Part shown: in pieces, positions 2,890-29,283 of the stretch
How the letters are laid out: the number at the start of each line of letters is the position of its first letter
Position numbering within the stretch: the first letter of the stretch is position 1
Origin: Trichormus variabilis 0441
GTDB lineage: Bacteria; Cyanobacteriota; Cyanobacteriia; Cyanobacteriales; Nostocaceae
Assembly: GCF_009856605.1 (NCBI RefSeq)
Contig: NZ_CP047243.1
Span: 248,001 to 312,000 of the forward strand
DNA length: 64,000 nt
Reading direction: 5' to 3'
The notes under the pieces: generated by a model
The model's database searches: none
Seen by the model: only the letters and a program-made list of their open reading frames with translations
Told to the model about the DNA's origin: nothing
Program-made: the position numbers and the translations under genes

Positions 2890-2948
2890 TCACCCCACCA
2901 CATAAAATTTATACGCACGCATAACTGTAGAGATTATGCAAATCCTCT

Positions 2949-6399: not shown

Positions 6400-6916
6400 A
6401 GCGATCGCTCTCCTAGTATTTCTGGGTCAAGTTTAGCATTCACTTTTAACTGATAACCTTTAACCTTAAAGTACCAGAGTTAGACATTGCGTGCTTATCC
6501 CTGTTCTAAGACACGCAATCGAGGTAATGCCATTGATGTTAGAAAAATCGTCAACTGGGTTGCCACAATACTAGGGCCCGATGGCAAATTTAACCCCGCA
6601 GAAAAGAGGATTCCAATCACCGCACTCAACGCCCCTAGCCCCGCCGATAGCACCACGTAGTTGGCAAATGTACGACTCAGCAACCGGGCGGCGCAGGCAG
6701 GAATCACCACAAACGCACTCACCAGTAATACCCCGATCGCCTTAATCGAAATTCCTACCACCAGCGACAGCAACACAACAAACGCTGTGCGATGGGCCGA
6801 AACTGACACACCACGAGCGATCGCCAGTGGTTCATGCAGCGTCAACAACATTTGCGTTCGCAATGTGAGCATAATAAAGATGGTACAAACCAGTAATAAC
6901 CCCGTACTAAAGATTA

Positions 6917-8081
6917 TACTGAATAGGGAAAGGTAGTATCATTTGAAGCAGAGGGAAAAAGGCTAGAAAAATGGTACGTCCCAGGATAAAACTAACAGAG
7001 CATCTATCAACAGAAGAAATAGAACAAAGTTATCGCCGATGTGAAGATGCACAAGAGAAAACCCGATGGTTAGTGATTAAATTGCTCAATCAACAACCAC
7101 AGTTGTCAGCGCAAAAGGTAGCAGAGATTGTGGGATTCTCAGGGGACTGGGTGAGAAAAATCGTGCGGCGATACAACAAGCTAGGAGCAAACGGAATCAT
7201 CAATCAACAGAAACTGAAACCAGGAGGAAAAAAACTTGCACTCACAAACGAGCAACAACAGTGGTTGCGCCAAAGGTTAGCTTCACCACCAGAAGATGGG
7301 GGGTTATGGAGTGCGCCAAAAGTAGGGGAATTGATCCGAGTACAGTTTGGAATTACACTCCATGTCACTACAGCTTGGGATTACCTCAAAAGGCTAGGAT
7401 TTAGTCTGCAACAACCACGACCTCTGCATACTGAGGCGGCAACTTTTGTTCAAAGACAGATGTTTAAAACTGAGTTAACGGAGTTTGTGCGATTGTTACG
7501 TTTCCTCCATCCGCACAAATCAGTTGAAGTTTGGGCAGAAGATGAAGCTCGATTAGGCCTCAAACCCATCGTCCGTCGAGTTTGGACACCAGTAGGTCAT
7601 CGTCCCAATGCTGTGCATCGCACTCGTTACCAATGGCTTTATACTTATGGATTTGTCCATCCAGCTACTGGCGAGAGTTTTTTCTTGATTTTACCCAGAG
7701 TCAACATTGCTGTCATGCAAATGGCTTTAGATGCTTTTGCCGCTGAAGTCAATCCTCATCATCACAAAATCATTGTTTTGCTTGTTGATCAAGCTGGTTG
7801 GCATACCAGTAAACAATTAATGTTGCCAGCTGGTATCATTCTGTTTCCTCTGCCTGCTTATACACCTCAACTCCAACCGACTGAGTGTGTTTGGTCGCTT
7901 CTACGTGAAGCTGTTGCTAATCAGATGTTTTCTACTCTCGATGAACTAGAAACTGTGTTAATTTCTCGTTGTCAATGGTTAATGTCTCACCCTCAAATTG
8001 TTCATGGCAAGGTTGGGTTTGATTGGATTTGCCAAATTTGACCTCAGTTATTCAATTAATACTTCCTTTCCCAATTTAGTA
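6917..8081 (+). mobile_element. IS630-type insertion sequence, copy 1
   Basis: A 1165-bp element with imperfect terminal inverted repeats: left TACTGAATAGGGAAAGG, right (reverse complement) TACTAAATTGGGAAAGG. It is flanked by TTA at 6914-6916 and 8082-8084. A second copy of exactly the same length is at 41858-43022, also flanked by a 3-bp repeat. The 3-bp duplication, rather than the TA usual for IS630, is supported by the znuB frame, which is restored only with 3 bp. Confidence 0.93.
6971..8041 (+). CDS. IS630 family transposase
   Basis: A 356-residue transposase. N-terminal helix-turn-helix and winged-helix segments (AQKVAEIVGFSGDWVRKIVRRY) are followed by a DDE-type core: VWAEDEARLG (first Asp), VLLVDQAGWH (second Asp) and QLQPTECVW (Glu). 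It fills the element and is translated antisense to the interrupted znuB. Its protein is identical to that of the copy at 41898-42968, implying recent movement. Confidence 0.95.
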   Translation: MVRPRIKLTEHLSTEEIEQSYRRCEDAQEKTRWLVIKLLNQQPQLSAQKVAEIVGFSGDWVRKIVRRYNKLGANGIINQQKLKPGGKKLALTNEQQQWLRQRLASPPEDGGLWSAPKVGELIRVQFGITLHVTTAWDYLKRLGFSLQQPRPLHTEAATFVQRQMFKTELTEFVRLLRFLHPHKSVEVWAEDEARLGLKPIVRRVWTPVGHRPNAVHRTRYQWLYTYGFVHPATGESFFLILPRVNIAVMQMALDAFAAEVNPHHHKIIVLLVDQAGWHTSKQLMLPAGIILFPLPAYTPQLQPTECVWSLLREAVANQMFSTLDELETVLISRCQWLMSHPQIVHGKVGFDWICQI

Positions 8082-8519
8082 TTAGATCCGGTTCTCGCAC
8101 TGCCAGAATATCGCCAAACAAAAGATTATTCAGTCCCCCTTTGTACTGTCCCACGAAGCTAAGGGTAATGATGGCGATCGCCAATGACGAGGAGTAAATG
8201 ATGTTGAGTAAAGCATCCGTCCATAAGCGAGTCCGTTCTAGCAGGTACGTCACGACCAAAGCAAATACAACCGCAAAAGGTAGCAATACTACCGAGGGAT
8301 TTAACCCCAGGAGCAATCCGATGCTAATGCCTAACAACGCCGAGTGACCCAACGCATCGCTGAAGAAAGACAACTGGCGCAAGATTGTAAAACTGCCCAG
8401 CATTCCCCCCATCAATCCGGTGAGAATGCCGCCGAGCATGGCGCGTTGCATGAAGGGATATTGGAATAATTCGAGGATGCGGGTGAGTTCAGTCGGCATA
8501 AGAGAGTGGGGAGTAAGGG

Positions 8520-9284
8520 CTAACAGTGATGGTGATAGCGAACGAATTCAGAGCCATAGGCAGCAGAAAGATTGTCGGGAGAAAGGGCAACTTCTGGGGT
8601 TCCCTGACAAAGTAAAGTGCGATTGAGACACAGAACGCGATCGCAATGCCGCCGCACCATATTTAAATCGTGGGAGATTTGCAAAATTGTCCAGCCTTGC
8701 TCTAGCTTAAGTTGATAGAGCAATTGATAAAACTCTGTTTCACCGCGCATATCCAATCCTGCCGGAGCTTCATCTAGAATCAACAATCGACGTGGGTAAA
8801 CTAGGCAATATGCCAGCAACACCCGCTTCGTTTCACCCCCAGAAAGCCCACTAATCATTTGCTGTCTAAGATGGAGTGCATCTACCTTGGCTAAAGCATC
8901 TCGAACGGCATGACGACGTTTTCTACTGTTTGCCCAGGGCAGTTGAAATCCTAGCCTGTCCCAGCCCAAACCGACCAGTTCTTCTACCGTCATCGGGATG
9001 CGGCGATCAAATAGGAAGTTTTGCGGCAGGTAGGCAATCTGTTGACGGATCTGGGGCGCGAGTGATCCTTTGCGGCTCAACGGTTGCCCCAGAATGAAAA
9101 CGTTCCCTGCAAGACGTGGTAGAATGCCCAGAATGGCTTGCACCAGCGTACTTTTGCCTGCCCCATTCGGCCCAACGATCGCCGTATCGGTGCCTGCCTC
9201 TAGGGAAAAGGAAACATCCTGCACCGCCGCGTAGGTTTCTCGATAAACCGTGAGTTGCTCAACTGCGAGTACAATGTCTTGCAA
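8520..9284 (-). CDS. znuC: Zinc ABC transporter ATP-binding protein ZnuC
   Basis: A 254-residue cytoplasmic ATPase that powers zinc import with ZnuA and ZnuB. Walker A is GPNGAGKS, the signature is LSGGE, Walker B is LLILDEAPAGLD and the H-loop is ISHDLN. The start is a TTG at 9284 preceded by a strong AGGAGG (9289-9294) that overlaps the znuA stop, indicating tight coupling to znuA. It has no intact cognate permease here because znuB is interrupted 20 bp downstream. Confidence 0.93.
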   Translation of the reverse strand: MQDIVLAVEQLTVYRETYAAVQDVSFSLEAGTDTAIVGPNGAGKSTLVQAILGILPRLAGNVFILGQPLSRKGSLAPQIRQQIAYLPQNFLFDRRIPMTVEELVGLGWDRLGFQLPWANSRKRRHAVRDALAKVDALHLRQQMISGLSGGETKRVLLAYCLVYPRRLLILDEAPAGLDMRGETEFYQLLYQLKLEQGWTILQISHDLNMVRRHCDRVLCLNRTLLCQGTPEVALSPDNLSAAYGSEFVRYHHHC

Positions 9285-9293
9285 TCTAACCTC

Positions 9294-10415
9294 CTAAAAC
9301 CTAAACCCAACTCGCTGTGGCACTACTGCAATAGGCTGAGGCATCCAGATCGGCAACACAGACTGGGTTGAACCACCAAAAGCAGTGACCAAACTCTGCA
9401 CGTTCTGACGCATGGTTGTGATGTAATAATTCGGTTCCAGTGCTTCGGAACCACCAGTTTCAATCGGATCAAAAGTGCTGACCTTAACATTTAGATCCTT
9501 TGCCAACCCTGCAAACGCATTTTCTCCAGCCTGGGGTTCCGTCAGAATCGCTTTGAGATTAGATTCCTTCACTTCATCCGTCACCCGTTTGACATCATTC
9601 GGCGATGGATTTTCTTCCGGCACATCTACCAGAAAATTGGCTTTCAAGTTATAGCTTTGAGCAAAGTAGGGGGCAAAGTCATGGAAGGCAACAAAGGTTT
9701 TACCCGCAAATGGTTGCAGTTTTTTTGTGATTTCAGCATCTAAATCTCGCAGTTGTTGAATATAAGCTGCTGTGTTTGCCGTGTAGGTTTCCTTTCCACC
9801 AGGGTCAGCCGCAATCAGTCCATCTCGAATGTTTTCAACTTGTTCAATGGCACGTTTGGGATCGAGCCAGACATGAGGATTGTATTTTCCATGCTCGTGT
9901 CCATGTCCAGCTTCTGCTTTTTCATTTACGCCATGATCATGGTCATGCCCCTCGGTCGCTTCATTGGCGATCGTTTTCACGCCCTGACTGGAATCAATCA
10001 CTTTCAGATTAGCATTGCCCGCATTCTTGACCAGATCCTCCAGAAATTCCTCCACCTCCAGCCCGTTCTGCACCAGCACATCGGCTTTAGCTAGTTTTTG
10101 GGCATCCTCTGGTCTTGCCTGAAAATCATGGGGGCCGACATTGGTTGGCAGTAGCTGTGTCACTTCAGCGCGATCGCCCGCCACGGCTTTTGTAAACTGA
10201 GTGATCGGTAAAAACGTTGTCACCACTTGCAACTCATCAGTTGTGGCTGCGGTCGTCGATTGAGCCTGCGAATTTGAGCTGGTCGAAGGTGTATTCGCCG
10301 CACAACTTCCTAAACTAAGGGCGATCGCCGATACAACCACTACGGAAAACCGACGAACGAAATTGCTGGATGGTTGTAAACTTGTTTTTGAATGAATCAT
10401 TTGAAGTATCTTCAC
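9294..10415 (-). CDS. znuA: Zinc-binding periplasmic lipoprotein ZnuA
   Basis: A 373-residue cluster A-I binding protein that captures periplasmic Zn2+. The lipobox is LGSC (Cys38) after a long n-region; Met6 is an alternative start. Metal ligands of the family are visible: His in VGPHDF, His in NPHVWLDP, His in AFHDFAPYF and Asp in FDPIETGG. A His/Asp/Glu-rich loop (EGHDHDHG to GHGHEHG) between the first two ligands is typical of zinc, not manganese, binders. It lies 91 bp after hemB and 9 bp before znuC, in the operon that starts at the Zur-like box at 11584. Confidence 0.95.
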   Translation of the reverse strand: MKILQMIHSKTSLQPSSNFVRRFSVVVVSAIALSLGSCAANTPSTSSNSQAQSTTAATTDELQVVTTFLPITQFTKAVAGDRAEVTQLLPTNVGPHDFQARPEDAQKLAKADVLVQNGLEVEEFLEDLVKNAGNANLKVIDSSQGVKTIANEATEGHDHDHGVNEKAEAGHGHEHGKYNPHVWLDPKRAIEQVENIRDGLIAADPGGKETYTANTAAYIQQLRDLDAEITKKLQPFAGKTFVAFHDFAPYFAQSYNLKANFLVDVPEENPSPNDVKRVTDEVKESNLKAILTEPQAGENAFAGLAKDLNVKVSTFDPIETGGSEALEPNYYITTMRQNVQSLVTAFGGSTQSVLPIWMPQPIAVVPQRVGFRF

Positions 10416-10505: not shown

Positions 10506-11949
<1,444 letters not shown>

Positions 11950-17172: not shown

Positions 17173-17946
17173 ATGTCTGTACCAAACATTATTGTCGTTG
17201 CAGGTTCGTCTGGGGCTGGAAAAACTACCTGGGTTTGTCAACAGATGCGAGATATTGCAAATTTTGACAAAATAATTTATTACAGCCCTGGCACTGGGAC
17301 TGTTCCCGTTGACCAAACCCGCATAGCTTCTGAATTTCCTGATATACAAGTTTTTAGTGACGGTCAGGAAGTTGAATTTATCAACCAAATACCTCAAGCA
17401 AGTGCAGTGTATATCGAATTGGGGTTTTACTTGGAGTTAGGATCTGTAGCACAATTATTAGATAATCTGACTTACCGTACCGTAGCAGTCCTAGCACCCC
17501 ACCTCAAAGACTCTGAATACCATGCTTGGGCGAACAAGATTATACACGGCGTACCAACCCAAGCCAGTAATGCTGAAAGTTTATGGCGGGCGGCAAGCAG
17601 TGGTCAAGTAATTGACGAAAACAGTTTAGAGGAATTTTGGTACGAAATCACCCACGGAGCTTACGGTATTGTCACCCGTGCCAAAGGAATTTTTGATGTT
17701 AACGATGGTAGGTCACTTTACGGCGATTTCGTCGCGGGTGTTCCCCAAACAGACTTTCTGGAATTAGACCTACCGCGCTATTTAGAGGGTAGACCGCAGC
17801 GTTTCAGTGGACTAGAAGTGGTGGGGAAAAACTTGGATGAAGCAGCCTTAAGGCAAACCTTATCAGATTGCTGTTTATCTGACACTGCGATTTTGCAGTA
17901 CCAACGACAGGTTAAAGAGATTCTATTAGAGGAGACACAAACGTGA
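17173..17946 (+). CDS. Divergent CobW-like P-loop protein without CxCC motif
   Basis: A 257-residue protein. An N-terminal P-loop (VAGSSGAGKTTW) is followed by a degenerate middle with no CxCC, no NKxD and no His-rich stretch. The C-terminal part (FLELDLPRYLEGRPQRFSGLEVVG) resembles the CobW C-terminal domain. It looks like a reduced COG0523 relative that binds nucleotide but has lost the canonical metal-transfer cysteines, although single Cys residues remain. It is the first gene after a Zur box and overlaps the next gene by 4 bp (GTGA), so the products are probably made together. Confidence 0.75.
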   Translation: MSVPNIIVVAGSSGAGKTTWVCQQMRDIANFDKIIYYSPGTGTVPVDQTRIASEFPDIQVFSDGQEVEFINQIPQASAVYIELGFYLELGSVAQLLDNLTYRTVAVLAPHLKDSEYHAWANKIIHGVPTQASNAESLWRAASSGQVIDENSLEEFWYEITHGAYGIVTRAKGIFDVNDGRSLYGDFVAGVPQTDFLELDLPRYLEGRPQRFSGLEVVGKNLDEAALRQTLSDCCLSDTAILQYQRQVKEILLEETQT

Positions 17947-20138: not shown

Positions 20139-21644
20139 CTATAAATTAGTCAGTAATCTAGTTTTCCTGAGTATGAATGTTAACAGAGTTTCTTCTTGAG
20201 CTAGGATGTCTGTTGTGACTTCCATACCTGCTTGAACATGATACTTTTGCGAATTTTTTTGTAAGTAATTTACTTCTGGTTCAATTGTCGCATCATAATA
20301 GGCAGGTATTGATGAGTTATTTGCTGTAGTAATTGCATCGGCAGTAATTTCTCTCACTGCACCTTTAAGTGTGCCGTAATCAGGATAGGGATAAGCAGAA
20401 AATTGGATATTTACTTTACCTTGTTGACAATCTGCAATTTTTTCTAATCGACAAATCTGTACTTTACCAATGTCAGCAGATGCTACACGGGCTTTAATGA
20501 TTAAAGGCTTATTGTTGGGGGCGATCTGAGCGATCGCCTGTCCCAATTCTACAACTTGTCCGGGGTTTCGCAATTCTAACTTAAAAATATTGCCTGTAGC
20601 TGAAGCCCGAATGATAGTTTTTTGAATATCAGCTAAAATCTGTTTCAGTTCTTTTTTTGTATTATTAATTGTGTCTTGAATTTCCGTTTGACGCTGTAAT
20701 AAACTCTCTTTTTCTTGGCGTAAACGAGCTAAATTATTTTGTTTACTAGCCTGTTCAGTGGCAATTTTTTCTTGAGCAATTGTCATCACTGCATCACTGG
20801 GGTTTAATGCTGAGGAGGCTTTCACCCGGTTGGCTACTGCGGCTGTTAAAGCTTGCTGTTTTTGCTGAATGACTTGTTTTTGACTTTCTACGGCGGCTTT
20901 TTGGGATTCTAAAACTTGTGCTTGTTGTGTTGCTGCTAGTTGTACTTCTTCTAGTTGGTTTTGGGAAATAGAGCCAGATTGGGCGATAATTTGATAGCGA
21001 TCGTGCTTGACAATTGCCGCTTGATATGCAGCCTCTGCACTTTTGAGATTAGCTTGAATGGATTTTAAATCAGCTTGCGATCGCTGCAATTCATTTTGAG
21101 CAATTTTCAGATTAGCCTCAGCTTCTTGCCATTCACTACTCACCGCAATTTGTTTATCTGCATACTCTCTTTGTGTCAAGTTGAGTTCAGCCTTAGCTGA
21201 GGAAATCACACGTTCACCACGCTGATTTTCTGTGGTAATTTGCTGATCTAAAGCGAGAATTTGAGCATTTATTTGGTGAAGTTGTTGCTGAGATTTTTGA
21301 ATATTTCCTTGTAGTTGACTTTTTTTAGTTTGTAGTTGAGTATCATCAAGAATTACTAAAGATTCACCTTGGTTAACCAACTGATTTTCTCTGACAAAAG
21401 TTTTTTTCACCGTTCCTGCTATTGCTGTTTGAACTATACGTAATTCTCCAGTCGGACGCACAGTTCCAGGTGCTTTCACTGTTTGATGATATCTTGTCAA
21501 AGCTGCGACACTCACAGCCATACCCACCACACCCACAAGAAAAAATCCTCCTAGTCGCGTCCAAATACCAATTTGAGGTAGGTATTCATCGGATTTTGCA
21601 CTAGGAAGAAAATTAGGACTAAAATTTTTGAGTTCTACCATCAA
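20139..21644 (-). CDS. HlyD-family periplasmic adaptor for peptide export
   Basis: A 501-residue membrane fusion protein. One N-terminal membrane segment (GGFFLVGVVGMAVSVAALT) is followed by a biotinyl-lipoyl half (GTVRPTGELRIVQTAIAGTV), a long Gln-rich coiled-coil hairpin (about residues 110-340) and the returning lipoyl/beta-barrel part. It would link the inner-membrane peptidase-ABC exporter to an outer-membrane channel. It lies 56 bp after the lanthipeptide precursor gene, both downstream of a Zur box at 22032. No TolC-like gene is nearby. Confidence 0.9.
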   Translation of the reverse strand: MMVELKNFSPNFLPSAKSDEYLPQIGIWTRLGGFFLVGVVGMAVSVAALTRYHQTVKAPGTVRPTGELRIVQTAIAGTVKKTFVRENQLVNQGESLVILDDTQLQTKKSQLQGNIQKSQQQLHQINAQILALDQQITTENQRGERVISSAKAELNLTQREYADKQIAVSSEWQEAEANLKIAQNELQRSQADLKSIQANLKSAEAAYQAAIVKHDRYQIIAQSGSISQNQLEEVQLAATQQAQVLESQKAAVESQKQVIQQKQQALTAAVANRVKASSALNPSDAVMTIAQEKIATEQASKQNNLARLRQEKESLLQRQTEIQDTINNTKKELKQILADIQKTIIRASATGNIFKLELRNPGQVVELGQAIAQIAPNNKPLIIKARVASADIGKVQICRLEKIADCQQGKVNIQFSAYPYPDYGTLKGAVREITADAITTANNSSIPAYYDATIEPEVNYLQKNSQKYHVQAGMEVTTDILAQEETLLTFILRKTRLLTNL

Positions 21645-21700
21645 TTCAATTTAGTTTGTAGTCAGGACTTTAGTCCTTTGATTTGAGAAATGGTAACTGT

Positions 21701-21925
21701 TCACACACTGATATCTTCCAACGCACCAAAGACAGGCTTGCATTTAATTATGGGTGTATGTAGTGGATTACCACAGGTTGTGCATCCACCTGCAACAGAT
21801 GACATATCCTCATCACTCAGTTCAATCAAGCCAGCCGGGTTTTCTGGTAGCTGTTGCAATTGTTCGCTGCTGAGGCTTTGACGGTATTCCTCGTCTTTCC
21901 ATGCACGAATGATATCTACAGACAT
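21701..21925 (-). CDS. Mersacidin-type class II lanthipeptide precursor
   Basis: A 74-residue precursor. The leader (residues 1-47) has the type 2 features: acidic, ENPAGLIELSDEDMSSV and the double-glycine site AGG. The 27-residue core starts at Cys48 and contains Cys48, Cys51 and Cys62; Thr49, Thr50 and Thr57; Ser73; and His56. Up to three thioether rings are possible. It has a strong ribosome site (GGAGGT at 21931-21936, 5 bp before ATG) and a Zur-type box 107 bp upstream. LanM, LanT and HlyD genes flank it. The short spacing CxxC plus His56 could present zinc ligands if not all cysteines are cyclised; that is inference. It could instead be an antimicrobial peptide. Confidence 0.88.
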   Translation of the reverse strand: MSVDIIRAWKDEEYRQSLSSEQLQQLPENPAGLIELSDEDMSSVAGGCTTCGNPLHTPIIKCKPVFGALEDISV

Positions 21926-21930
21926 TATAT

Positions 21931-21936
21931 ACCTCC
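21931..21936 (-). promoter_or_regulatory. Strong ribosome binding site of lanthipeptide precursor
   Basis: GGAGGT lies 5 bp before the ATG at 21925. It is one of the strongest sites in the window, consistent with the high expression expected for a secreted peptide. Confidence 0.75.
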
Positions 21937-22031
21937 GATATTGGGGATTGGGTCATTTTCGCTATTCCTAGTGTTTCCTAGAAATTACGGCTGAAAAAGT
22001 ATTATTGATGACAATTTCATCAACATAAGAA

Positions 22032-22046
22032 TAATAATCATTATCA
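22032..22046 (-). promoter_or_regulatory. Zur box of precursor-hlyD unit
   Basis: TAATAATCATTATCA matches the 7-1-7 consensus at 13 of 14 informative positions. It lies in the 161-bp gap between lanT and the precursor gene, about 107 bp upstream of the precursor ATG. Confidence 0.8.
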
Positions 22047-22086
22047 TTATCTTAGTCAACTAGGTTTGAGAAACGGGTGCGGAGAT

Positions 22087-24234
22087 TCAAGAGATGAGGT
22101 AATCTAGGTGTTCACCAGGGATGTTGAGTAGTTCGGAGAGAGTGCCTTGGAGTTGGAGTTGTCCGGCTTCTAAGAGTACAATCCAGTCGGCACGTTTAAT
22201 GACGTGGGGACGATGACTAATCAGGATTGTGGTTTTCCCTTGGCGATAGGCTAGTAACTGGTCTAAAATTACACTTTCGGTTTTGGGATCTAGTCCAGCA
22301 GTGGATTCATCTAAAATCAAAATTGGTGGATGGGTGACTATCCCTCTGGCTATGGCTAATCTTTGTCTTTGTCCGCCGGAAAGATTAGCCCCAAATTCAC
22401 CTAAGATAGTTTGATATTTCTCCGGCAATTTACTGATAAATGTGTCTGCACCTGCTACCTGACAAGCTGTCACGACTTGTTCAAAGTTAACTTGGGGATT
22501 ACCAAGACGCAAATTATCTAAAATTGAACGACTCCAAAAATGAGCTTCTTGAGGAACTAAAATTACTTGTTGACGCAAGCAATCGGGTGATAAATCTTGG
22601 AGGTTGTAGCGGTGGATGCGAATATTCCCTGATTGGGGAGTGTACAACCCAGCTAGGAGTTTAGTGAGGGTACTTTTACCACACCCTGATTGTCCAATAA
22701 TGGCTATCACTTTTCCCCCTGGGAGAGTCAAGGAGAAATCTTGTAATAAATCTACTCTCCCAGGATGGTGAAAATTGAGATAACTGCAAATAATCTCTGC
22801 ATTGTCGGGAATGTTGACAAAGGGTTTGTGATTGACTTCAGGAAATTCTGGGGTAGATTGAATAACTTCATTTAAACGTTCTGTAGCGGCTTGGGCGCGG
22901 GTAAATTCGGTGACAAAACCAACGACTGTATTGACTAAGGCAATAATCTGAGTATTTAAACTATTAAAAGCTAATAGTTGCCCTATTGTGATTTCTCGAT
23001 TAATTACCAATGTACTGCCGAACCACAGCAAAATTATCCCTCCCGATGTGGCTACCCAACCAGAAAAAATATTATTAGTAATGACAATCTGCACGGTACG
23101 AAACATGAAGTTAGCTTGTCTACCGTAGCGAGTTTGAAATTCTTGCCAAAATTCCGGGGCTGCATTGGTAGTTTTGACAACTAATGCACCTTTGAAGGTT
23201 TCCACTAAAATACCTTGATTTTCGGCAGCTATTCCTAGAACATTGCGGATTTTCTGTTGCAGACTGGGGAAGAAAACCACTGTGGATAGGGGCATGAATA
23301 AAGCGATGAATAATGAGGCGAGGGTGAGTTTAGGGCTATAAAATAGCATCAAAGCTAAAGAAGCGATCGCAATTAATAATTGACTGGGTAAAGTCACACC
23401 CACTTGCGAAACTAATTGATTAATGGTTTGAATATCCCGTAACCGACTCACCACTTCACCACTACGGCGAGATTCATAATAGGACAAAGGCAAACGTAAA
23501 ATGATTCTGCCAAATTCTAAGACTAAATCTAATTCTAAACGATGGGCAAAGTGTGCTACTAAGTTTCCTTGTACCCATTGCAAAGCACTACTAATTAAAC
23601 TCATCGCTAAGACTCCCAAGGCTATACCCGTGAGTAATTGGGTGTCTCCCCTCACCAAAACATCATCTGTGAGAATTTGGATGAGAAATGGCGAAAGTAA
23701 GGCTAATAAGCCGACGACAAAGTTAAGTAGTAAGGCTTCTGCTAAGATATGACGGTAACTAAATAGACGTTGCCCTAAGCGTTTCCACCCGCCGACTTTA
23801 TCTTGATCATCTGCTTGAGAAAGGAAATCGGGACGGGGTTCTAGTAGCAGCATTACGCCGTTAGTCCAACCAGTTAACAGTGCTTCTTTGGTTAAATAAC
23901 GCACACCCACCAAGGGATCAGCGACGATATATTGTTTACCTCTGCGTCCATATAATACAGTCCAGTGATTACCTTTCCAGTGAATGATGGCTGGGAGAGG
24001 TATCTGTTGCTTATCTACTAAGTCGATAACAGCTTTCACTCCCCGCGCATTGAAGCCTAAAACTTGCGCCCCTTGTTTGAGGTTGAGTAAAGTTGTTCCT
24101 AATTGTCCTGTTCCTGCGGCTTCACGGGTGCGGTTGATGGTGAATAGCCGTCCGTAGTATTTGCAGATGGTGGCTAGACAGGCGGGGCCACAGTCTTCTT
24201 CGTTGTGTTGTAGGACGACGGGGTATTTTATCAT
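22087..24234 (-). CDS. Peptidase-containing lanthipeptide ABC exporter (LanT, C39 domain)
   Basis: About 715 residues from the ATG at 24234 (a GTG at 24276 would add 14). The N-terminal C39 peptidase has catalytic Cys in NEEDCGPACL, His in GNHWTVLYG and Asp in VADP, and would cut the precursor after AGG. A transmembrane domain with about six helices follows, then the ATPase with Walker A GQSGCGKST, signature LSGGQ and Walker B ILILDESTAGLD. It lies 30-70 bp after lanM on the same strand. It cleaves and exports the modified peptide across the inner membrane, working with the HlyD protein. Confidence 0.92.
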   Translation of the reverse strand: MIKYPVVLQHNEEDCGPACLATICKYYGRLFTINRTREAAGTGQLGTTLLNLKQGAQVLGFNARGVKAVIDLVDKQQIPLPAIIHWKGNHWTVLYGRRGKQYIVADPLVGVRYLTKEALLTGWTNGVMLLLEPRPDFLSQADDQDKVGGWKRLGQRLFSYRHILAEALLLNFVVGLLALLSPFLIQILTDDVLVRGDTQLLTGIALGVLAMSLISSALQWVQGNLVAHFAHRLELDLVLEFGRIILRLPLSYYESRRSGEVVSRLRDIQTINQLVSQVGVTLPSQLLIAIASLALMLFYSPKLTLASLFIALFMPLSTVVFFPSLQQKIRNVLGIAAENQGILVETFKGALVVKTTNAAPEFWQEFQTRYGRQANFMFRTVQIVITNNIFSGWVATSGGIILLWFGSTLVINREITIGQLLAFNSLNTQIIALVNTVVGFVTEFTRAQAATERLNEVIQSTPEFPEVNHKPFVNIPDNAEIICSYLNFHHPGRVDLLQDFSLTLPGGKVIAIIGQSGCGKSTLTKLLAGLYTPQSGNIRIHRYNLQDLSPDCLRQQVILVPQEAHFWSRSILDNLRLGNPQVNFEQVVTACQVAGADTFISKLPEKYQTILGEFGANLSGGQRQRLAIARGIVTHPPILILDESTAGLDPKTESVILDQLLAYRQGKTTILISHRPHVIKRADWIVLLEAGQLQLQGTLSELLNIPGEHLDYLIS

Positions 24235-24306
24235 GCACAGATGCAGAGGGTAGGAGTTGAGTTGATACCAATTCACAAGAAAACTATGATCGAGAGTCGA
24301 ACTTTC

Positions 24307-27300
24307 TTAATTTTGAATTTTGAATTTTGAATTGGTATGAGGGGGTTCTAGGAGGAGGATGGAGGGGATTTTTTCAGGATGGTCTAGGCGTAAGCATCCG
24401 TAGCCTATACCTGCTAGTCCTGTCATGAGTCCTGGGGTTTCTATGGCTAGGGGTACGCCACAATAAAAGTTATGTTGGTGGATTTGATTTAGAATTTGGT
24501 TGGTGATGGGGGATGTGTGGGATGTGAGTTCTGGCTGGATTTTGCTGGCGAGTAATAATAGGTCTAGGTTGCCTAAGTCTCCGTGACACAGACATTGATT
24601 ATCCCCAAATCCTTGGTTGATAGTTGTGTGAATGGCGATCGCAATTTCTTTGTGAATTTCTGGATCATCTAGGTATTTTAAGGCACGCCAGCGTCCTAAG
24701 CCAATCCCTGGCGCACCATGACACCACGCTGTCATAAATTGGTTTTGTGCGGGGGTGCGTAAGTCTAGCCAGTTCCCCGCCTCTGGGGAAAAATGTCTGC
24801 GTTCGTAGTTAATTGCTTTGATAGCTGCGGTTTGAAATTCTTGTTTTCCAGTAATTTGGGCTAATTCTAACAGTACCGACGCAAACCCAGCCGCACCATG
24901 AGCAAATCCTGTGAGGGGTTGCTTTCCACCACTGGGAGAAATCCAGCCGATTCCATCATCCATGATTTGGGCTTGGTTAAGCAGATGTTCTCCACACTCC
25001 AAGGCGACATCTAAAATTAAGTCATTGGGAAAAACTTGGTATAAACTTAACAAGCTAGCAATGCAACCAGCTACACCTGCGATCATATCTAACTGTTCAT
25101 CTTGGACTATCAAGCCAGGAAGTTTTTTTACTAAGGTAAGTGCATCAGCAATTAAATCGGGATTTTGCCAGAGTGTGCCTAAGTGAGTGTAGGTGTAAAT
25201 AATTCCTCCCCAGCCACTAAATGCGCCGATGAATTTGATTGTGTCGGTATCTCTAATCAACTGCTGTTGTAAAGTTTTGATGGCGGCTTTTGCTAGGCGG
25301 GTATAGTGATAATTTTGGGTAATTTCTCCTAAATAAGCCAAGAAAAAAGCTATTCCTGGTACACCTTCATAAAAATCTGTTCCCAAGGGGGCTAATGTCC
25401 ATTGATGATTGTTGGTGACGGTGACACCCATCCAGTTAATCAATTCACCGTTTTTATGGGCGAGGAGTTCTAGACGGTCAGCAATTATACAAGCTGCTGT
25501 GAGTGGTGAGTGGGGGGTGGGAATTTGGGAGTTACTAATACTAGCTGAGTGTTTGACTTGATGTTGATCAGTATTAGTATTTATCCCCAATGTAGCCAAA
25601 GCTGACTGAATAAACCATTGCTGACGTTGTAAGTCACGTTCACTCAGTTGTTGAATGCGATGGTGAACTAATTCCATTCCCGACTGGGTGAAAAAATTGG
25701 GCAAATGTAAGTTAGTGTCTCGACTCCATAAATCACAGGAATGGGGATGGGTGGTAAATAAGGGAATATCACCTTGCCATAATGCTTGATGTTCTGCCCT
25801 AATGACTTGAGTAAGAAGAGGTCGATTTTGTACGTCTACCCACAGTTTATCAAACAGGCGATCGCGCTCTAAGGCATCGCGCAACACATCAGGGTGATAG
25901 CTTTCCCGCAGTAGTAAAGCATAACTTCGACTCGGACGCAGCACTACACGCACCTCATCAGCTACAAATCTCTCTAATATCTTCAGCAATTCTTGACGAT
26001 GTTGTAAAAGGGTGCGGTAAACATCTGTAAATCCTTGGGTAATAGCTGGTGTATAGGCTTGTACATTCACCTCCTTTTCGTTGAGTGTGGGGCGATTTTG
26101 ACTACCTGCTAATACCACCTGTCGGCGGACAATTCGCATGGTATCAGTACCGATTTTCTCCAACTGGGGGACTCGTTCTGGTGTCACTTGTCCAGCCGCA
26201 CCACCCAAGCCACTCAAATCAATGCCGGCTGCTTGGGTATTTCCCCAGACTAACTGAGGTAATAAACCTACCCGCAATACGGAATCTGCAATCATTTCTC
26301 TATCTAAGGTAGCGGCGGCTGTGGTTGTGGCTTCATGGCTGCGGGGATGAAATAAAGATTCTAAATCAATCAGTATGGGGTGTTCGCCGACAGCAATTAA
26401 GTTTTCAAAGTGAAAGTCTGTAGCTGATAAAACATATAACAAGGCTAAGTAACCACCTTGACGCTGATAAAAACGCTGAATTTCCTCCAAGGAAGTACAT
26501 TTTTGCGCTTTGACAAATTCCATCCAACCATAATCACCCCGATTGAGAATTTTTAGGGTTTTAAACGGGGGATGAGTGCCTTGTTGATTTAACCAAAGTA
26601 GTAATTCTTGAAAATGCTCATCTACAGCTAGGGAACGAGGCTTATAAACTAACTGCCAACCACTCTCAAATTCCAGTATAAAAACAGACCTACCACCATG
26701 ATGACTATCTCCTGCACCCCGTTGAATTTTGATCAGTTTACCGGGGTTGTTTGGCTGGAAGTGGTGACATATTTCTTCCCAATCATCGCCAAGACGTTGC
26801 AGAAACTCCAAGCTAGTTGTCACCCATCGCTGAATTTCTTCTATAATTAGCCGTGCTAACACAGGGTACTCTTGCCAAAGCATGAGCCTCGCTTCCCCCG
26901 TTTGCAACCGTTGCACAAAGCTAGAAAATCTCTCCTCGGCAGTATCACCTGTTAATAATCCTTGTAACCTCGCCACGTTGAGTTCTAGTACCAAGGTGGG
27001 ATGGAGCATGAATAATAGTTGTTCTGGTAAGCCTTGTAAAAAAATACTGTCAATATTACTAATATCAATAGGTATATTTTGTAGATTATCAACCCCTACC
27101 CTCAGTTGCATCATACCTTGACGAATGCAGGGAGCGATCGCATTTAGCAATCCCAGATGAGGATCGGGCAAACCTTGTATTTCTATAATCTCCTCATCCT
27201 CAGGATTACTGAAAACTGCCGTCAATTTCCCTAACCAAGCTTGTGGAATTTGCGGTGCTGTTTGCCCTAATAGGTAACAAAAATCATCTACCTTCAAACC

Positions 27301-27483
27301 ATCTATTGCTAATCTTTGGACAAACAAAGCCTCATTCATGAAAGGAGATTGCATCCGCCATCGCTGGAATCGTCGCTGCCCCAAATCAGCATTTAATGGT
27401 GCTGTTAGCGACATAGCTGCAATTCTTTCTGTTAGTGATACTGCACGATACCAAGTGGCATCCTCATAGTTAAATTTTTTCAT
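24307..27483 (-). CDS. Class II lanthipeptide synthetase LanM
   Basis: A 1058-residue bifunctional enzyme. The N-terminal lipid-kinase-like dehydratase (about residues 200-600, with GGRSVFILEFESGWQLVYKPR, LSATDFHFENLI and ILIDLESLFHPR) phosphorylates and eliminates Ser/Thr. The C-terminal LanC-like cyclase (about 700-1040) keeps the zinc ligands in WCHGAPGIGLG and CLCHGDLGN (Cys, Cys-His), in the standard CHG rather than the ProcM-type CCG form. The last residues (NSKFKIQN) are encoded by AATTTTG heptamer repeats at 24309-24334, so the original C-terminus has been altered. A perfect Zur palindrome lies 35 bp upstream of the ATG. Confidence 0.95.
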   Translation of the reverse strand: MKKFNYEDATWYRAVSLTERIAAMSLTAPLNADLGQRRFQRWRMQSPFMNEALFVQRLAIDGLKVDDFCYLLGQTAPQIPQAWLGKLTAVFSNPEDEEIIEIQGLPDPHLGLLNAIAPCIRQGMMQLRVGVDNLQNIPIDISNIDSIFLQGLPEQLLFMLHPTLVLELNVARLQGLLTGDTAEERFSSFVQRLQTGEARLMLWQEYPVLARLIIEEIQRWVTTSLEFLQRLGDDWEEICHHFQPNNPGKLIKIQRGAGDSHHGGRSVFILEFESGWQLVYKPRSLAVDEHFQELLLWLNQQGTHPPFKTLKILNRGDYGWMEFVKAQKCTSLEEIQRFYQRQGGYLALLYVLSATDFHFENLIAVGEHPILIDLESLFHPRSHEATTTAAATLDREMIADSVLRVGLLPQLVWGNTQAAGIDLSGLGGAAGQVTPERVPQLEKIGTDTMRIVRRQVVLAGSQNRPTLNEKEVNVQAYTPAITQGFTDVYRTLLQHRQELLKILERFVADEVRVVLRPSRSYALLLRESYHPDVLRDALERDRLFDKLWVDVQNRPLLTQVIRAEHQALWQGDIPLFTTHPHSCDLWSRDTNLHLPNFFTQSGMELVHHRIQQLSERDLQRQQWFIQSALATLGINTNTDQHQVKHSASISNSQIPTPHSPLTAACIIADRLELLAHKNGELINWMGVTVTNNHQWTLAPLGTDFYEGVPGIAFFLAYLGEITQNYHYTRLAKAAIKTLQQQLIRDTDTIKFIGAFSGWGGIIYTYTHLGTLWQNPDLIADALTLVKKLPGLIVQDEQLDMIAGVAGCIASLLSLYQVFPNDLILDVALECGEHLLNQAQIMDDGIGWISPSGGKQPLTGFAHGAAGFASVLLELAQITGKQEFQTAAIKAINYERRHFSPEAGNWLDLRTPAQNQFMTAWCHGAPGIGLGRWRALKYLDDPEIHKEIAIAIHTTINQGFGDNQCLCHGDLGNLDLLLLASKIQPELTSHTSPITNQILNQIHQHNFYCGVPLAIETPGLMTGLAGIGYGCLRLDHPEKIPSILLLEPPHTNSKFKIQN

Positions 27484-27517
27484 GGGAAATCACAGTGTTT
27501 ACACTGTCGTATGATTA

Positions 27518-27532
27518 TGATAATTATTATCA
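27518..27532. promoter_or_regulatory. Perfect Zur palindrome between lanM and porin
   Basis: TGATAATTATTATCA is an exact 7-1-7 match to the cyanobacterial Zur consensus. It sits 35 bp from the lanM start and about 57 bp from the porin start in the 105-bp divergent promoter region, so one bound dimer set could control both directions. Confidence 0.9.
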
Positions 27533-27588: not shown

Positions 27589-29283
27589 GTGATGTTAAAA
27601 GCGTTGTGGTGTGGGCTTTTGGGTGTATCAACATGGGTAATTGCGGCGGAAGTGTGGGCGGCGGAAAATACAGATGACTCATTAGCACAGGTAACTTCCG
27701 TATCTCAGTTATCCGATGTCCAACCCACAGATTGGGCGTTTGCAGCTTTGCAATCTTTAGTAGAACGTTATGGCTGTATTGCAGGTTATCCCAACGGTAC
27801 GTTCCGGGGAAATCGTGCGATGACTCGTTATGAGTTCGCCGCCGGATTAAATGCTTGCTTAGATAGGGTAAATGAGCTAATAGCTACGGCTACGGCTGAA
27901 ACAGTTCAAAAAGAAGATTTAGCGACTTTACAAAGGCTACAAGAGGAATTTACAGCCGAACTAGCAACTTTACGGGGACGGGTGGATGCAATAGAAGCCA
28001 GAACTGCAACTTTAGAAACACAGCAGTTCTCTACAACTACCAAGCTTTCCGGCGAAGTGATTTTTGCTATTACTGATGTTTTGTCAGGAGATAGTGATCC
28101 TTTTGGAGTGGACTTACCTCGTAATAGTACGATTTTAGCTAATAGAGTTCGACTCAATTTACTTAGTAGCTTTACAGGGAAAGACGAGCTAAAAATTAGA
28201 CTACAAGCTGGTAGCACTCCCCACCCCCAAAGGGCTGGAGGTTTCCGCTATGGAGCAGATCCCGTGCTGGCTTCCTTGGGAAGTCTACAAACAACACCAG
28301 AAGGTAGTCAAACCTTTAACCAAGAGTTTCCAGATCAAGCGGGTAGTGTAGAAATAGGCACTGTTAGTTATAAATTTCCGGTGGGTGATAAATTACGCGC
28401 GGCTGTATTTGCCAATCGGGGAGAACACGTAGATTATTTACCAAATGTGTTTAGTGCAGTTGGTGATGAAGATGGGGGTTCTGGTTCACTTTCCACCTTT
28501 GCTCAATATAGCCCGATTTATCGCATTGTTTCCCAAGGTGCGGGTGTGGGGTTGAATTATGAATTGAGTCCTGCTATTAACTTGACTTTAGGATACTTAG
28601 CCCCAAATGCTAGTAGTCCAGAAAATTTAACTCCTAGTAGCAGTAATGGCACAACGGCTGGAGGTTTATTTAATGGTCGCTATTCAGCTTTAGCACAATT
28701 AACTATCCAACCAACCAGAAATTTAGCTTTCGGTTTAACTTACGTTAATGCTTATACAGCAGGAACACCTACTTTTCTCAATGATGTGGGGACAATTTCC
28801 GCAAATTCACCAAGTTTAATTTCTGATAATTCCCGACGCACAATCAATGCTTATGGTGTAGCGGGGTTGTGGCGAGTTTCTCCCAAATTCGCTGTTAATG
28901 GTTGGTTTATGTATACCAATCAACAAGGCCAATCCGCCGGGGAAGATAATGAAAGTGCAGATGTTTACAGTTATGCGATCGCTCTAGCCTTTCCTGATTT
29001 GGGTAAAGATGGTAACTTGGGAGGTATTATCGTCGGTGTTCCCCCCTATGCTACTCGTTCTGGTGTCGTTCCCTTATATAGACCCTTTTTAGGTGGTGCA
29101 ACTGACGTAATCAGCACTATACCTAATCGCGCTACCCCAGTACATTTAGAAGCCTTCTACAAATATCAACTCAACGATAATATCTCAATTACACCTGGAG
29201 TAATTTGGTTAATTGCTCCTAACCAAACCAGTGATAACCCTGATGTAGTTATAGGTACAATTCGCACTACTTTTAGGTTTTGA
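27589..29283 (+). CDS. SLH-domain outer-membrane porin (cyanobacterial iron-uptake-porin type)
   Basis: 564 residues from the GTG at 27589; ATG at 27592 is the likelier start. A signal peptide ends near AEVWAAE. An SLH domain (DVQPTDWAFAALQSLVERYG, then YPNGTFRGNRAMTRYEFAAG; about residues 45-95) anchors to peptidoglycan. A coiled-coil (EEFTAELATLRGRVDAIEART) follows, then an OprB-like 16-strand barrel ending TIRTTFRF. Such porins carry small solutes and ions across the cyanobacterial outer membrane. The divergent Zur box suggests a role in zinc entry or a matching role with the exported peptide. Confidence 0.92.
   Translation: MMLKALWCGLLGVSTWVIAAEVWAAENTDDSLAQVTSVSQLSDVQPTDWAFAALQSLVERYGCIAGYPNGTFRGNRAMTRYEFAAGLNACLDRVNELIATATAETVQKEDLATLQRLQEEFTAELATLRGRVDAIEARTATLETQQFSTTTKLSGEVIFAITDVLSGDSDPFGVDLPRNSTILANRVRLNLLSSFTGKDELKIRLQAGSTPHPQRAGGFRYGADPVLASLGSLQTTPEGSQTFNQEFPDQAGSVEIGTVSYKFPVGDKLRAAVFANRGEHVDYLPNVFSAVGDEDGGSGSLSTFAQYSPIYRIVSQGAGVGLNYELSPAINLTLGYLAPNASSPENLTPSSSNGTTAGGLFNGRYSALAQLTIQPTRNLAFGLTYVNAYTAGTPTFLNDVGTISANSPSLISDNSRRTINAYGVAGLWRVSPKFAVNGWFMYTNQQGQSAGEDNESADVYSYAIALAFPDLGKDGNLGGIIVGVPPYATRSGVVPLYRPFLGGATDVISTIPNRATPVHLEAFYKYQLNDNISITPGVIWLIAPNQTSDNPDVVIGTIRTTFRF

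What the first reader, a model, noticed from the sequence alone, without database searches (positions are those of the whole stretch)
20139..27532. Complete class II lanthipeptide system apparently under Zur control: candidate lanthipeptide zincophore
Seen: one mersacidin-like precursor with a 27-residue core (three Cys, three Thr, one Ser, one His), LanM with intact cyclase ligands, a C39-peptidase ABC exporter and an HlyD adaptor. A perfect 7-1-7 Zur palindrome (27518) lies before lanM-lanT and a 13/14 site (22032) lies before precursor-hlyD. Known: Zur controls zinc acquisition genes; lanthipeptides are usually antimicrobial or signalling peptides. Inference: the peptide is secreted on zinc starvation to bind or scavenge zinc, with uptake by the nearby Zur-linked TonB receptors and the peptide-type binding protein. 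The alternative is a zinc-limitation-triggered antimicrobial.
Basis: partly seen in the sequence, partly recalled or inferred. Interest (0 to 1): 0.95.

Follow-up and report, generated by a model that had tools for sequence, protein, structure and literature searches.

The report
Zinc-starvation lanthipeptide, a likely zincophore
A cyanobacterium and a whole branch of its relatives carry genes for a small modified peptide right behind DNA sites that match their zinc-starvation switch, and because the peptide's core keeps a histidine in every member of that branch compared here, it is likely released to catch scarce zinc.

Summary
In detail: lanM-lanT and lanA-hlyD are complete, with a perfect TGATAATNATTATCA palindrome at 27518 and a 13/14 site at 22032. 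The cluster is identical to one on plasmid A of Trichormus (Anabaena) variabilis ATCC 29413. Zur control is strongly supported: boxes recur before lanA in 31 of 33 related clusters (controls 1 of 68) and before lanM in 28 of 31, and follow the genes through three gene orders. In this genome such boxes also stand before zepA, hemB, COG0523-type genes and a TonB-receptor/ABC-importer operon. These LanMs form one branch. All 31 intact box-bearing cores keep a histidine while the rest turns over; 16 of 33 branch cores read CX2C-Xn-H-Xn-C (others 0 of 73). New here: 15 of 30 branch LanMs, not the window's, have replaced cyclase zinc ligands (Cys to Ser/Asn, His to Asn/Ser) while keeping fold and the catalytic-type His, as zinc-sparing enzymes of Zur regulons do. 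Most likely this is a zinc-starvation peptide that binds zinc outside the cell. Zinc binding, uptake and receptor are inferred; a zinc-timed antimicrobial is the main rival, and Fur cross-talk is not excluded.

The parts
24307..27483 (-). lanM, class II lanthipeptide synthetase, 1058 aa, cyclase zinc ligands C921/C966/H967 intact
   Evidence: TIGR03897 1107 bits, cut-off 304; PF13575, PF05147; ligands; AVA_RS27210 in the identical named record
22087..24276 (-). lanT, C39 peptidase-containing ABC exporter (record annotation starts at 24231)
   Evidence: PF03412, PF00664, PF00005; AVA_RS27205
21701..21925 (-). lanA precursor, mersacidin/lichenicidin-type leader, core after Gly-Gly CTTCGNPLHTPIIKCKPVFGALEDISV
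   Evidence: AVA_RS27200
20139..21644 (-). hlyD, periplasmic adaptor of the exporter (record annotation starts at 21641)
   Evidence: PF13437; AVA_RS27195
27518..27532 (.). perfect 7-1-7 Zur-box-like palindrome TGATAATTATTATCA, between lanM and the porin
   Evidence: strongly conserved block in a 6-sequence alignment; lanM boxes in 28 of 31 assessable branch clusters
22032..22046 (.). 13/14 Zur-box-like site before lanA; the same 15-mer (other orientation) as the box before hemB in this window
   Evidence: conserved in a 5-sequence alignment; lanA boxes in 31 of 33 branch clusters
22031..22059 (-). promoter-like TTGACT-17-TATTAT of lanA; the box lies in the spacer and overlaps the -10
   Evidence: TTGAC invariant in 5 sequences
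27589..29283 (+). OprB/SLH 'iron uptake' porin, divergent from lanM, shares the 27518 box
   Evidence: PF04966, PF00395; NF033921 543 bits, cut-off 100; AVA_RS27215
11584..11598 (.). yardstick box before hemB (10506-11576, -), TGATAATGATTATTA
   Evidence: hemB PF00490
11950..11964 (.). 2-mismatch box before thrS (11977-13821, +)
   Evidence: PF00587
17149..17163 (.). 2-mismatch box before a CobW_C protein (17173-17946, +)
331..5564 (-). two AMIN-type TonB-dependent receptors (331-2889, 2949-5564); in the named record an Opp-type ABC importer follows on the same strand
6495..10415 (-). znuA (9294-10415), znuC (8520-9284) and znuB in two pieces (8056-8499, 6495-6872) split by an IS630-type element (6971-8041, +)
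   Evidence: ISAva6 named

Best explanation
Window 20139-27532 encodes a complete class II lanthipeptide cluster with near-perfect Zur-box palindromes before lanM-lanT and before lanA-hlyD, so its peptide is predicted to be made when zinc runs out and is likely secreted to bind extracellular zinc for return to the cell. Steps shown: the genes, both boxes, their conservation in one branch of cyanobacterial LanMs, the box inside a conserved promoter-like site of lanA, a Zur-like protein in the genome, and a histidine in all 33 branch cores examined. Steps inferred: Zn-Zur represses both promoters and lets go at low zinc; LanM dehydrates and cyclises the core; the C39 domain of LanT cuts after Gly-Gly and exports the core with HlyD; the His (beside a predicted methyllanthionine in the His-Thr cores), the C-terminal acids and any uncyclised Cys hold Zn2+; the complex returns through a Zur-boxed TonB receptor and an ABC importer of SBP_bac_5 or FecCD type, or zinc is handed to ZnuABC. 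In half of the branch the synthetase itself has lost cyclase zinc ligands, which would let it run without zinc, or would leave Cys thiols free as zinc ligands.
For: Boxes before lanA: up to 1 mismatch in 23 of 33 branch clusters, up to 2 in 31 of 33; controls 0 and 1 of 68; shuffle means 0 and about 0.2. Boxes before lanM: 28 of 31 assessable, 17 perfect. The boxes follow the genes: divergent porin/lanM plus lanT-box-lanA; divergent hlyD/lanA plus box-lanM; one box before a lanA-lanM-lanT-hlyD run, L016. In the family, 9 of 9 full-length porin relatives of at least 82% identity that face lanM (own included) have a box with at most 1 mismatch between them; the one full-length relative without lanM (G199, 81%) has none. 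In the stretches held (branch 8-24 kb, controls 4-20 kb), 29 of 33 clusters carry porin, znu, cobW, thrS, folE, FecCD, SBP or similar island genes; controls 7 of 55, four of them generic ABC ATPase hits and one (L027) a decayed member of the family. Own-genome best sites stand 31 bp before the all3515/ZepA family 'Zur-repressed' protein, and before cobW, CobW_C, two hemB and a TBDT-DUF7676-SBP-FecCD-ATPase operon on the same replicon. Zur present: the L089 ORF best matches 7NE9, the Synechococcus Zur. LanM branch: one split, SH-aLRT 99, after dropping 11 rows; 2 changes against 22.9 shuffled with all 71 rows. Core His: 31 of 31 box-bearing intact cores; 33 of 33 in the branch set against 9 of 48 cyanobacterial or unassigned controls (20 of all 68); 12 of 12 core clusters against 7 of 33. 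CX2C-Xn-H-Xn-C: 16 of 33 against 0 of the other 73 (pattern chosen after looking). Cyclase zinc ligands replaced in 15 of 30 branch LanMs, 0 of 38 controls (L155 and two truncated rows apart).
Against: No expression, binding or metal data. A 1-mismatch site also precedes a diaminobutyrate transaminase/decarboxylase operon of siderophore type (L182), so Fur may read such sites too. In the window LanM is intact, so its three Cys may all end as thioethers, poor zinc ligands, leaving one His and acids. No TonB receptor was found in the held stretch of most branch clusters; the FecCD-type SBP occurs in 90 of 208 family genomes, mostly without lan. The branch is one lineage, so the His and box counts are not independent events. 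L138 and L159 were counted as branch members with only 3-mismatch boxes. Alignment A1, used to find further members, contained cores. Ten of 44 near-invariant LanC columns fall below 90% in the ligand-less LanMs, so loss of cyclase function is open.
Confidence: 0.58

Rival explanations
1. Zur-induced antimicrobial: the peptide is made at low zinc to kill or inhibit competitors, and zinc control only sets the time of attack.
For: Mersacidin-type leader and class II machinery; cores diversify strongly between lineages, as expected in antagonism; a cyanobacterial class II lanthipeptide (nostolysamide) is reported as antifungal (PMC13060382, passages).
Against: His kept in all intact box-bearing cores while the rest turns over; no immunity gene (LanFEG, LanI) is named between AVA_RS27140 and AVA_RS27215; znu, SBP or FecCD genes beside several clusters.
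Confidence: 0.24
2. The boxes belong to the porin and other zinc genes; the lan genes merely lie in a Zur island and are not zinc-controlled.
For: The 27518 box is shared with a divergent porin; porin ORFs occur in 20 of 33 branch stretches, mostly beside lanM.
Against: A separate conserved box lies in the lanA promoter-like site. Twelve branch stretches show no porin; leaving out three cut close to lanM (L025, L045, L050), nine remain and eight of them have a lanA box with up to 2 mismatches. The one full-length close porin relative without lanM lacks the box. In Anabaena sp. [quoted passage not shown] orthology to this porin not tested).
Confidence: 0.06
3. The palindromes are Fur (iron) boxes and the peptide serves iron or another metal.
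For: The motif resembles the Fur 7-1-7 box (recalled); one 1-mismatch site precedes a siderophore-type operon (L182); the receptors and porin carry 'siderophore'/'iron' names.
Against: A perfect site precedes the all3515/ZepA family, a Zur target in Anabaena (PMC10957091 section 7); the lanA 15-mer equals the hemB box; neighbours are znu, hemB, thrS, cobW, folE, typical Zur targets (PMC6103462, PMC2770081, passages); it is zinc ligands that half of the LanMs have lost.
Confidence: 0.08
4. The peptide is an envelope or signalling peptide of the zinc-starvation response that neither binds zinc nor kills.
For: A porin and, in five clusters, a gene for a weakly DUF3466/PEP-CTERM-like protein sit beside the lan genes.
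Against: Does not explain the conserved His and the CX2C-H-C pattern.
Confidence: 0.04

Closest known systems
Class II lanthipeptides with mersacidin/lichenicidin leader (cyanobacterial class II example: nostolysamides, PMC13060382, passages read)
   Same: LanM; for the window also TIGR03898 leader, Gly-Gly before the core, C39 exporter, HlyD partner
   Different: Zur boxes at both promoters, zinc-island setting, His in every branch core examined; half of the branch lacks cyclase zinc ligands
ZepA/All3515 (PMC10957091: outline, sections 7, 11, 12, 17 and 18 read)
   Same: Zur-repressed, secreted, proposed extracellular zinc scavenging with conserved His; Zur sites overlap the -10 in both
   Different: ZepA is a PEP-CTERM protein of about 300 aa; this is a 27-residue core of a RiPP with its own synthetase and exporter
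Small-molecule zincophores such as staphylopine and pseudopaline (recalled; zincophores mentioned in PMC10957091 section 18)
   Same: Made at low zinc and exported; the SBP_bac_5 protein near the window is distantly like CntA (71.7 bits, cut-off 800)
   Different: Opine metallophores, not ribosomal peptides
Methanobactin, a ribosomal chalkophore (recalled)
   Same: A RiPP used to capture a metal
   Different: Copper, oxazolone/thioamide chemistry, unrelated enzymes and regulator
Class III LanKC metal-independent cyclases (PMC10604976, passages read)
   Same: LanC fold with Ser in place of the first zinc-ligand Cys (ThurKC Ser726)
   Different: Here class II LanM with mostly Ser/Cys/Asn at the three places, under Zur boxes; that paper calls the ligands strictly conserved in all other cyclase domains
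Zinc-independent paralogues in Zur regulons: HemB2, PyrC, DksA (PMC2770081, passages read)
   Same: Zinc ligands lost in enzymes behind Zur sites
   Different: Those are paralogues of housekeeping proteins; here a biosynthetic synthetase

Membership tests
Class II lanthipeptide cluster | LanM with dehydratase and LanC-like domains | tested here: met
   TIGR03897 1107 bits, cut-off 304; PF13575 and PF05147
Class II lanthipeptide cluster | Cyclase zinc ligands Cys-Cys-His | tested here: met
   Met in the window (C921, C966, H967) and in 15 of 30 branch LanMs; not met in the other 15
Class II lanthipeptide cluster | LanA leader ending in Gly-Gly with Ser/Thr/Cys core, and a C39 exporter | tested here: met
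   TIGR03898 81.3 bits, cut-off 23.5; core; PF03412
Class II lanthipeptide cluster | Dehydrated, thioether-cyclised product | not testable with these tools
   Needs mass spectrometry
Zur regulon | Near-perfect Zur box at the promoter | tested here: met
   27518 and 22032; conserved
Zur regulon | Zur protein in the genome | tested here: met
   L089:1447-1851, best match 7NE9 Synechococcus Zur
Zur regulon | Box read by Zur rather than Fur | tested here: inconclusive
   Seven of nine other intergenic best sites stand before zinc-type genes, one before a siderophore-type operon
Zur regulon | Zur binding and derepression at low zinc | not testable with these tools
   Needs EMSA and RNA
Zincophore | Zinc-binding product | not testable with these tools
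   His/Cys/acid conservation is suggestive only
Zincophore | Dedicated export | tested here: met
   LanT and HlyD genes in the cluster; hlyD ORFs in 31 of 33 branch stretches; export itself not tested
Zincophore | Cognate outer-membrane receptor and importer | tested here: inconclusive
   Zur-boxed TBDT-SBP-FecCD operon on the same replicon; TBDTs plus Opp-type importer about 15-25 kb away; beside lan in only some genomes
Lantibiotic (antimicrobial) | Immunity genes (LanFEG or LanI) | tested here: inconclusive
   None named among the annotated neighbours; not all lantibiotic clusters have them (recalled)

The most novel reading that the evidence does not exclude
A deep branch of cyanobacterial lanthipeptides is a ribosomal zincophore family under Zur: diverse cores built round a conserved His, often as a zinc-knuckle-like CX2C-X4-H-X4-6-C, exported at zinc starvation. 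In half of the branch the synthetase has shed its own zinc and works as the first zinc-free class II LanM, or stops cyclising so that the Cys stay free to hold zinc.
Probability: 0.45. Interest if true: 0.95.

Novelty: new variant of a known kind. Interest (0 to 1): 0.88.

Why it matters
Lanthipeptides are known as antimicrobials, antifungals and signals (recalled, apart from PMC13060382); a zinc-scavenging one would give the class a nutritional job and add a ribosomal, easily engineered member to the zincophores. A branch of LanMs without cyclase zinc ligands under zinc control would let one ask directly how thioether rings form without metal in class II, or whether they form at all. The cluster is identical to one in Trichormus variabilis ATCC 29413, a culture-collection strain, so the steps can be tested.

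Tried and rejected
Box counts with up to 2 mismatches across the genome gave no enrichment (126 against 122 reversed) and were not used. The L056 box (2 mismatches, Chloroflexota, repetitive cores) is taken as chance. L027, held again as L157 (Trichormus sp. NMC-1), is a decayed copy (truncated lanA, lanM and porin, box kept) and was left out of core counts. L155/L019 (Oscillatoria-like) have His, Cys and only 3-mismatch palindromes; L155 falls next to the window's sub-branch with weak support; both were kept as controls, and L155 was set apart in the ligand count. Co-occurrence of the FecCD-type SBP with branch lanA in the family was modest (13 of 17 against 77 of 191, Fisher 0.005); the draws differ (217 and 208 genomes), so some of the 17 may not have been searched. 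The PEP-CTERM-like gene between lanA and lanM in five clusters (one member scanned, weak matches) does not show the ZepA motif H-X2-9-H-F/Y-H, read by eye; no role assigned. The homology search with LanM listed 120 of 3411 matches; all 120 were checked for the ligands. Paper searches (open-access PMC only; 12 to 20 rows shown of 13 to 1,230 hits) showed no title or abstract start on Zur-controlled or zinc-scavenging lanthipeptides; most listed papers were not read, so absence is not shown. The original Anabaena Zur paper (PMC3347182) was not held; Zur data are from PMC10957091 and PMC6103462. Most stretches cannot show a receptor further than 10 kb away. The short HlyD match (L194) was not pursued.
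Full report
WHAT IS THERE. The window is G000:C2:248001-312000 of a 7.1 Mb cyanobacterial genome; 20139-27532 is 100% identical over its whole length to plasmid A of Trichormus (Anabaena) variabilis ATCC 29413, NC_007410.1, AVA_RS27195-27210. On the minus strand lie lanM, lanT, lanA and hlyD, with a divergent OprB/SLH porin beyond lanM. A family search found no other LanM in the genome.

THE BOXES. TGATAATTATTATCA at 27518 is perfect; 22032 has one mismatch. The lanA box is the same 15-mer as the box just before hemB in the window and the box before a TonB receptor 88 kb away on the replicon. Genome-wide, up to one mismatch gives 16 sites against 4 for the reversed pattern, but up to two gives 126 against 122. 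Of the 16, five lie inside reading frames. Of the other eleven, two are the lan boxes; seven precede the all3515/ZepA family (31 bp; NF040463 'Zur-repressed', 326.8 bits, cut-off 75), a CobW GTPase, a CobW_C protein (the box overlaps the first codons of the mechanical ORF), two hemB and two TonB receptors (one 101 bp away, one 533 bp away with another gene nearer on the other side); one precedes a gene of unknown kind; and one a diaminobutyrate transaminase followed by a decarboxylase, which looks like siderophore synthesis and may be Fur's. The lanA box lies in the 17-bp spacer of TTGACT-TATTAT and overlaps the -10; TTGAC and most of the box are invariant in five aligned sequences. Zur sites overlapping -10 boxes are what was reported for zepA (PMC10957091 section 7). 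The genome has three Fur-family proteins; the L089 ORF best matches 7NE9, the Synechococcus Zur (PMC9337993, passages).

RELATIVES. A single-query scan with the precursor gave 73 loci; searches with an alignment of 21 precursors hit, branch and non-branch alike, 9 of 386, 43 of 388 and 52 of 217 genomes of phylum, order and family (overlapping draws). Joining the 73 loci, 40 fetched stretches and the window and removing duplicates left 106 precursors. Boxes with up to two mismatches lie within 350 bp of 33: 31 intact cyanobacterial precursors, one truncated (L027) and one taken as chance (L056). With L138 and L159, added for core and LanM kinship and holding only 3-mismatch sites, and without L027 and L056, the branch set is 33: 31 have a lanA box, against 1 of 68 controls; shuffle means are about 0.2 (L027 and rows without a core left out). 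Before lanM, 28 of 31 assessable clusters have a box, 17 perfect. Gene order differs: porin/lanM-lanT-lanA-hlyD; hlyD/lanA with lanM-lanT apart; lanA-lanM-lanT-hlyD; boxes stay with the first genes in each, so they most likely serve the lan genes.

THE PORIN RIVAL. In the family, 14 of 208 genomes hold a close porin relative. Nine full-length ones (82% identity or more, own included) face a lanM across a box with at most one mismatch; G657, whose porin is truncated, does too; G718 (62%, faces a lanM) has a 2-mismatch site; G199 (81%, full length, no lanM) has no box; two are partial. Twelve branch stretches show no porin; without three cut close to lanM, nine remain, eight with a lanA box of up to two mismatches.

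NEIGHBOURS. In the stretches held, 29 of 33 branch clusters carry porin, znu, cobW, thrS, folE, FecCD, SBP or similar island genes, against 7 of 55 controls, some of whose stretches are shorter. Two clusters abut znuABC (L016, L138); L138 matches a conjugative plasmid of Dolichospermum sp. DET69, and the window's copy is on a plasmid typed conjugative. L009 and L011 lie beside SBP, FecCD and ATPase genes; L011 and L015 beside a TonB receptor and SBP. Near the window, two TonB receptors are followed in the named record by SBP_bac_5, two permeases and two ATPases. That SBP occurs in 12 of 208 family genomes; three (G000, G799 at 89%, G706 at 48-52% identity) have the branch lanA, each 13-22 kb from it. 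The FecCD-type SBP is common (90 of 208), so it is no private partner.

ONE BRANCH. In a quick LanM tree of 71 rows the label needs 2 changes against 22.9 shuffled. Dropping 11 long or truncated rows (L155, L060, L069, L057, L052, L073, L065, L061, L068, L071, L039) gives one split with SH-aLRT 99. Named members span Nostocaceae, Microcoleaceae, Spirulinaceae, Calotrichaceae, Nodulariaceae, Coleofasciculaceae, Gomphosphaeriaceae and Stigonemataceae. The boxes have therefore been kept over deep divergence; the counts are not independent events.

THE CORE. All 31 box-bearing intact cores contain His; in the 33-set it is 33 of 33, always as HT or HH, against 9 of 48 cyanobacterial or unassigned controls (20 of all 68) with any His; after clustering cores at 50% identity, 12 of 12 against 7 of 33. 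The HT/HH and CX2C-Xn-H-Xn-C patterns were chosen after looking; the latter fits 16 of 33 and none of the other 73: window CX2CX4HX5C, L153 CX2CX4HX4C, the spacing of CCHC zinc knuckles (recalled). L166 has three Cys but two Ser/Thr, so at least one Cys cannot be bridged within the core. Acidic residues near the C-terminus are also common (31 of 33 against 22 of 48).

VERDICT. Zur control: very likely by comparison (my estimate 0.93), unproven at the bench. Zincophore function: most likely (0.58), because it explains the His, the Cys pattern, the island, the importers and the ligand-less synthetases together. A zinc-timed antimicrobial is the main rival (0.24).

Noticed in passing
window 6495-8499: Plasmid znuB is split by an IS630-type element (ISAva6 in the named record), so this znuABC copy looks broken in this strain.
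   Followed up: partly
LanM of L005, L006, L012, L013, L014, L025, L045, L046, L050, L135, L137, L143, L150, L153, L166 and L155: LanC zinc ligands replaced (mostly Ser-Cys-Asn) in an otherwise conserved class II synthetase: a predicted zinc-free or non-cyclising LanM branch.
   Followed up: yes
L009, L010, L011, L018, L164 (between lanA and lanM); L021 similar: A gene for a weakly DUF3466/PEP-CTERM-like protein sits between lanA and lanM on the other strand; role unknown.
   Followed up: partly
L013, L014, L135 (between lanT and lanA); in the stretches of L015 and L153: An FAD/NAD(P)-binding oxidoreductase (PF13454, one member scanned) gene recurs with the cluster; a possible tailoring enzyme.
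   Followed up: no
L229:4139-10750 (G000:C2:182138-188749): Zur-boxed TonB receptor, DUF7676-ferredoxin, SBP, FecCD and ATPase operon on the same replicon, a candidate metallophore importer.
   Followed up: partly
L182:3186-4734: A 1-mismatch box precedes a diaminobutyrate transaminase/decarboxylase operon near a TonB receptor, probably siderophore genes; shows that Fur and Zur sites are hard to tell apart.
   Followed up: partly
L184 (G000:C3:210000-215000) and G000:C3:207839-209419: A second TonB receptor with an SBP_bac_5 paralogue near a 1-mismatch box on another replicon.
   Followed up: no
L230 (G653): A lanM with box and porin beside znuABC, a TonB receptor and an SBP, but with no lanT, lanA or hlyD found in the 18.6 kb stretch: probably a decayed cluster.
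   Followed up: partly
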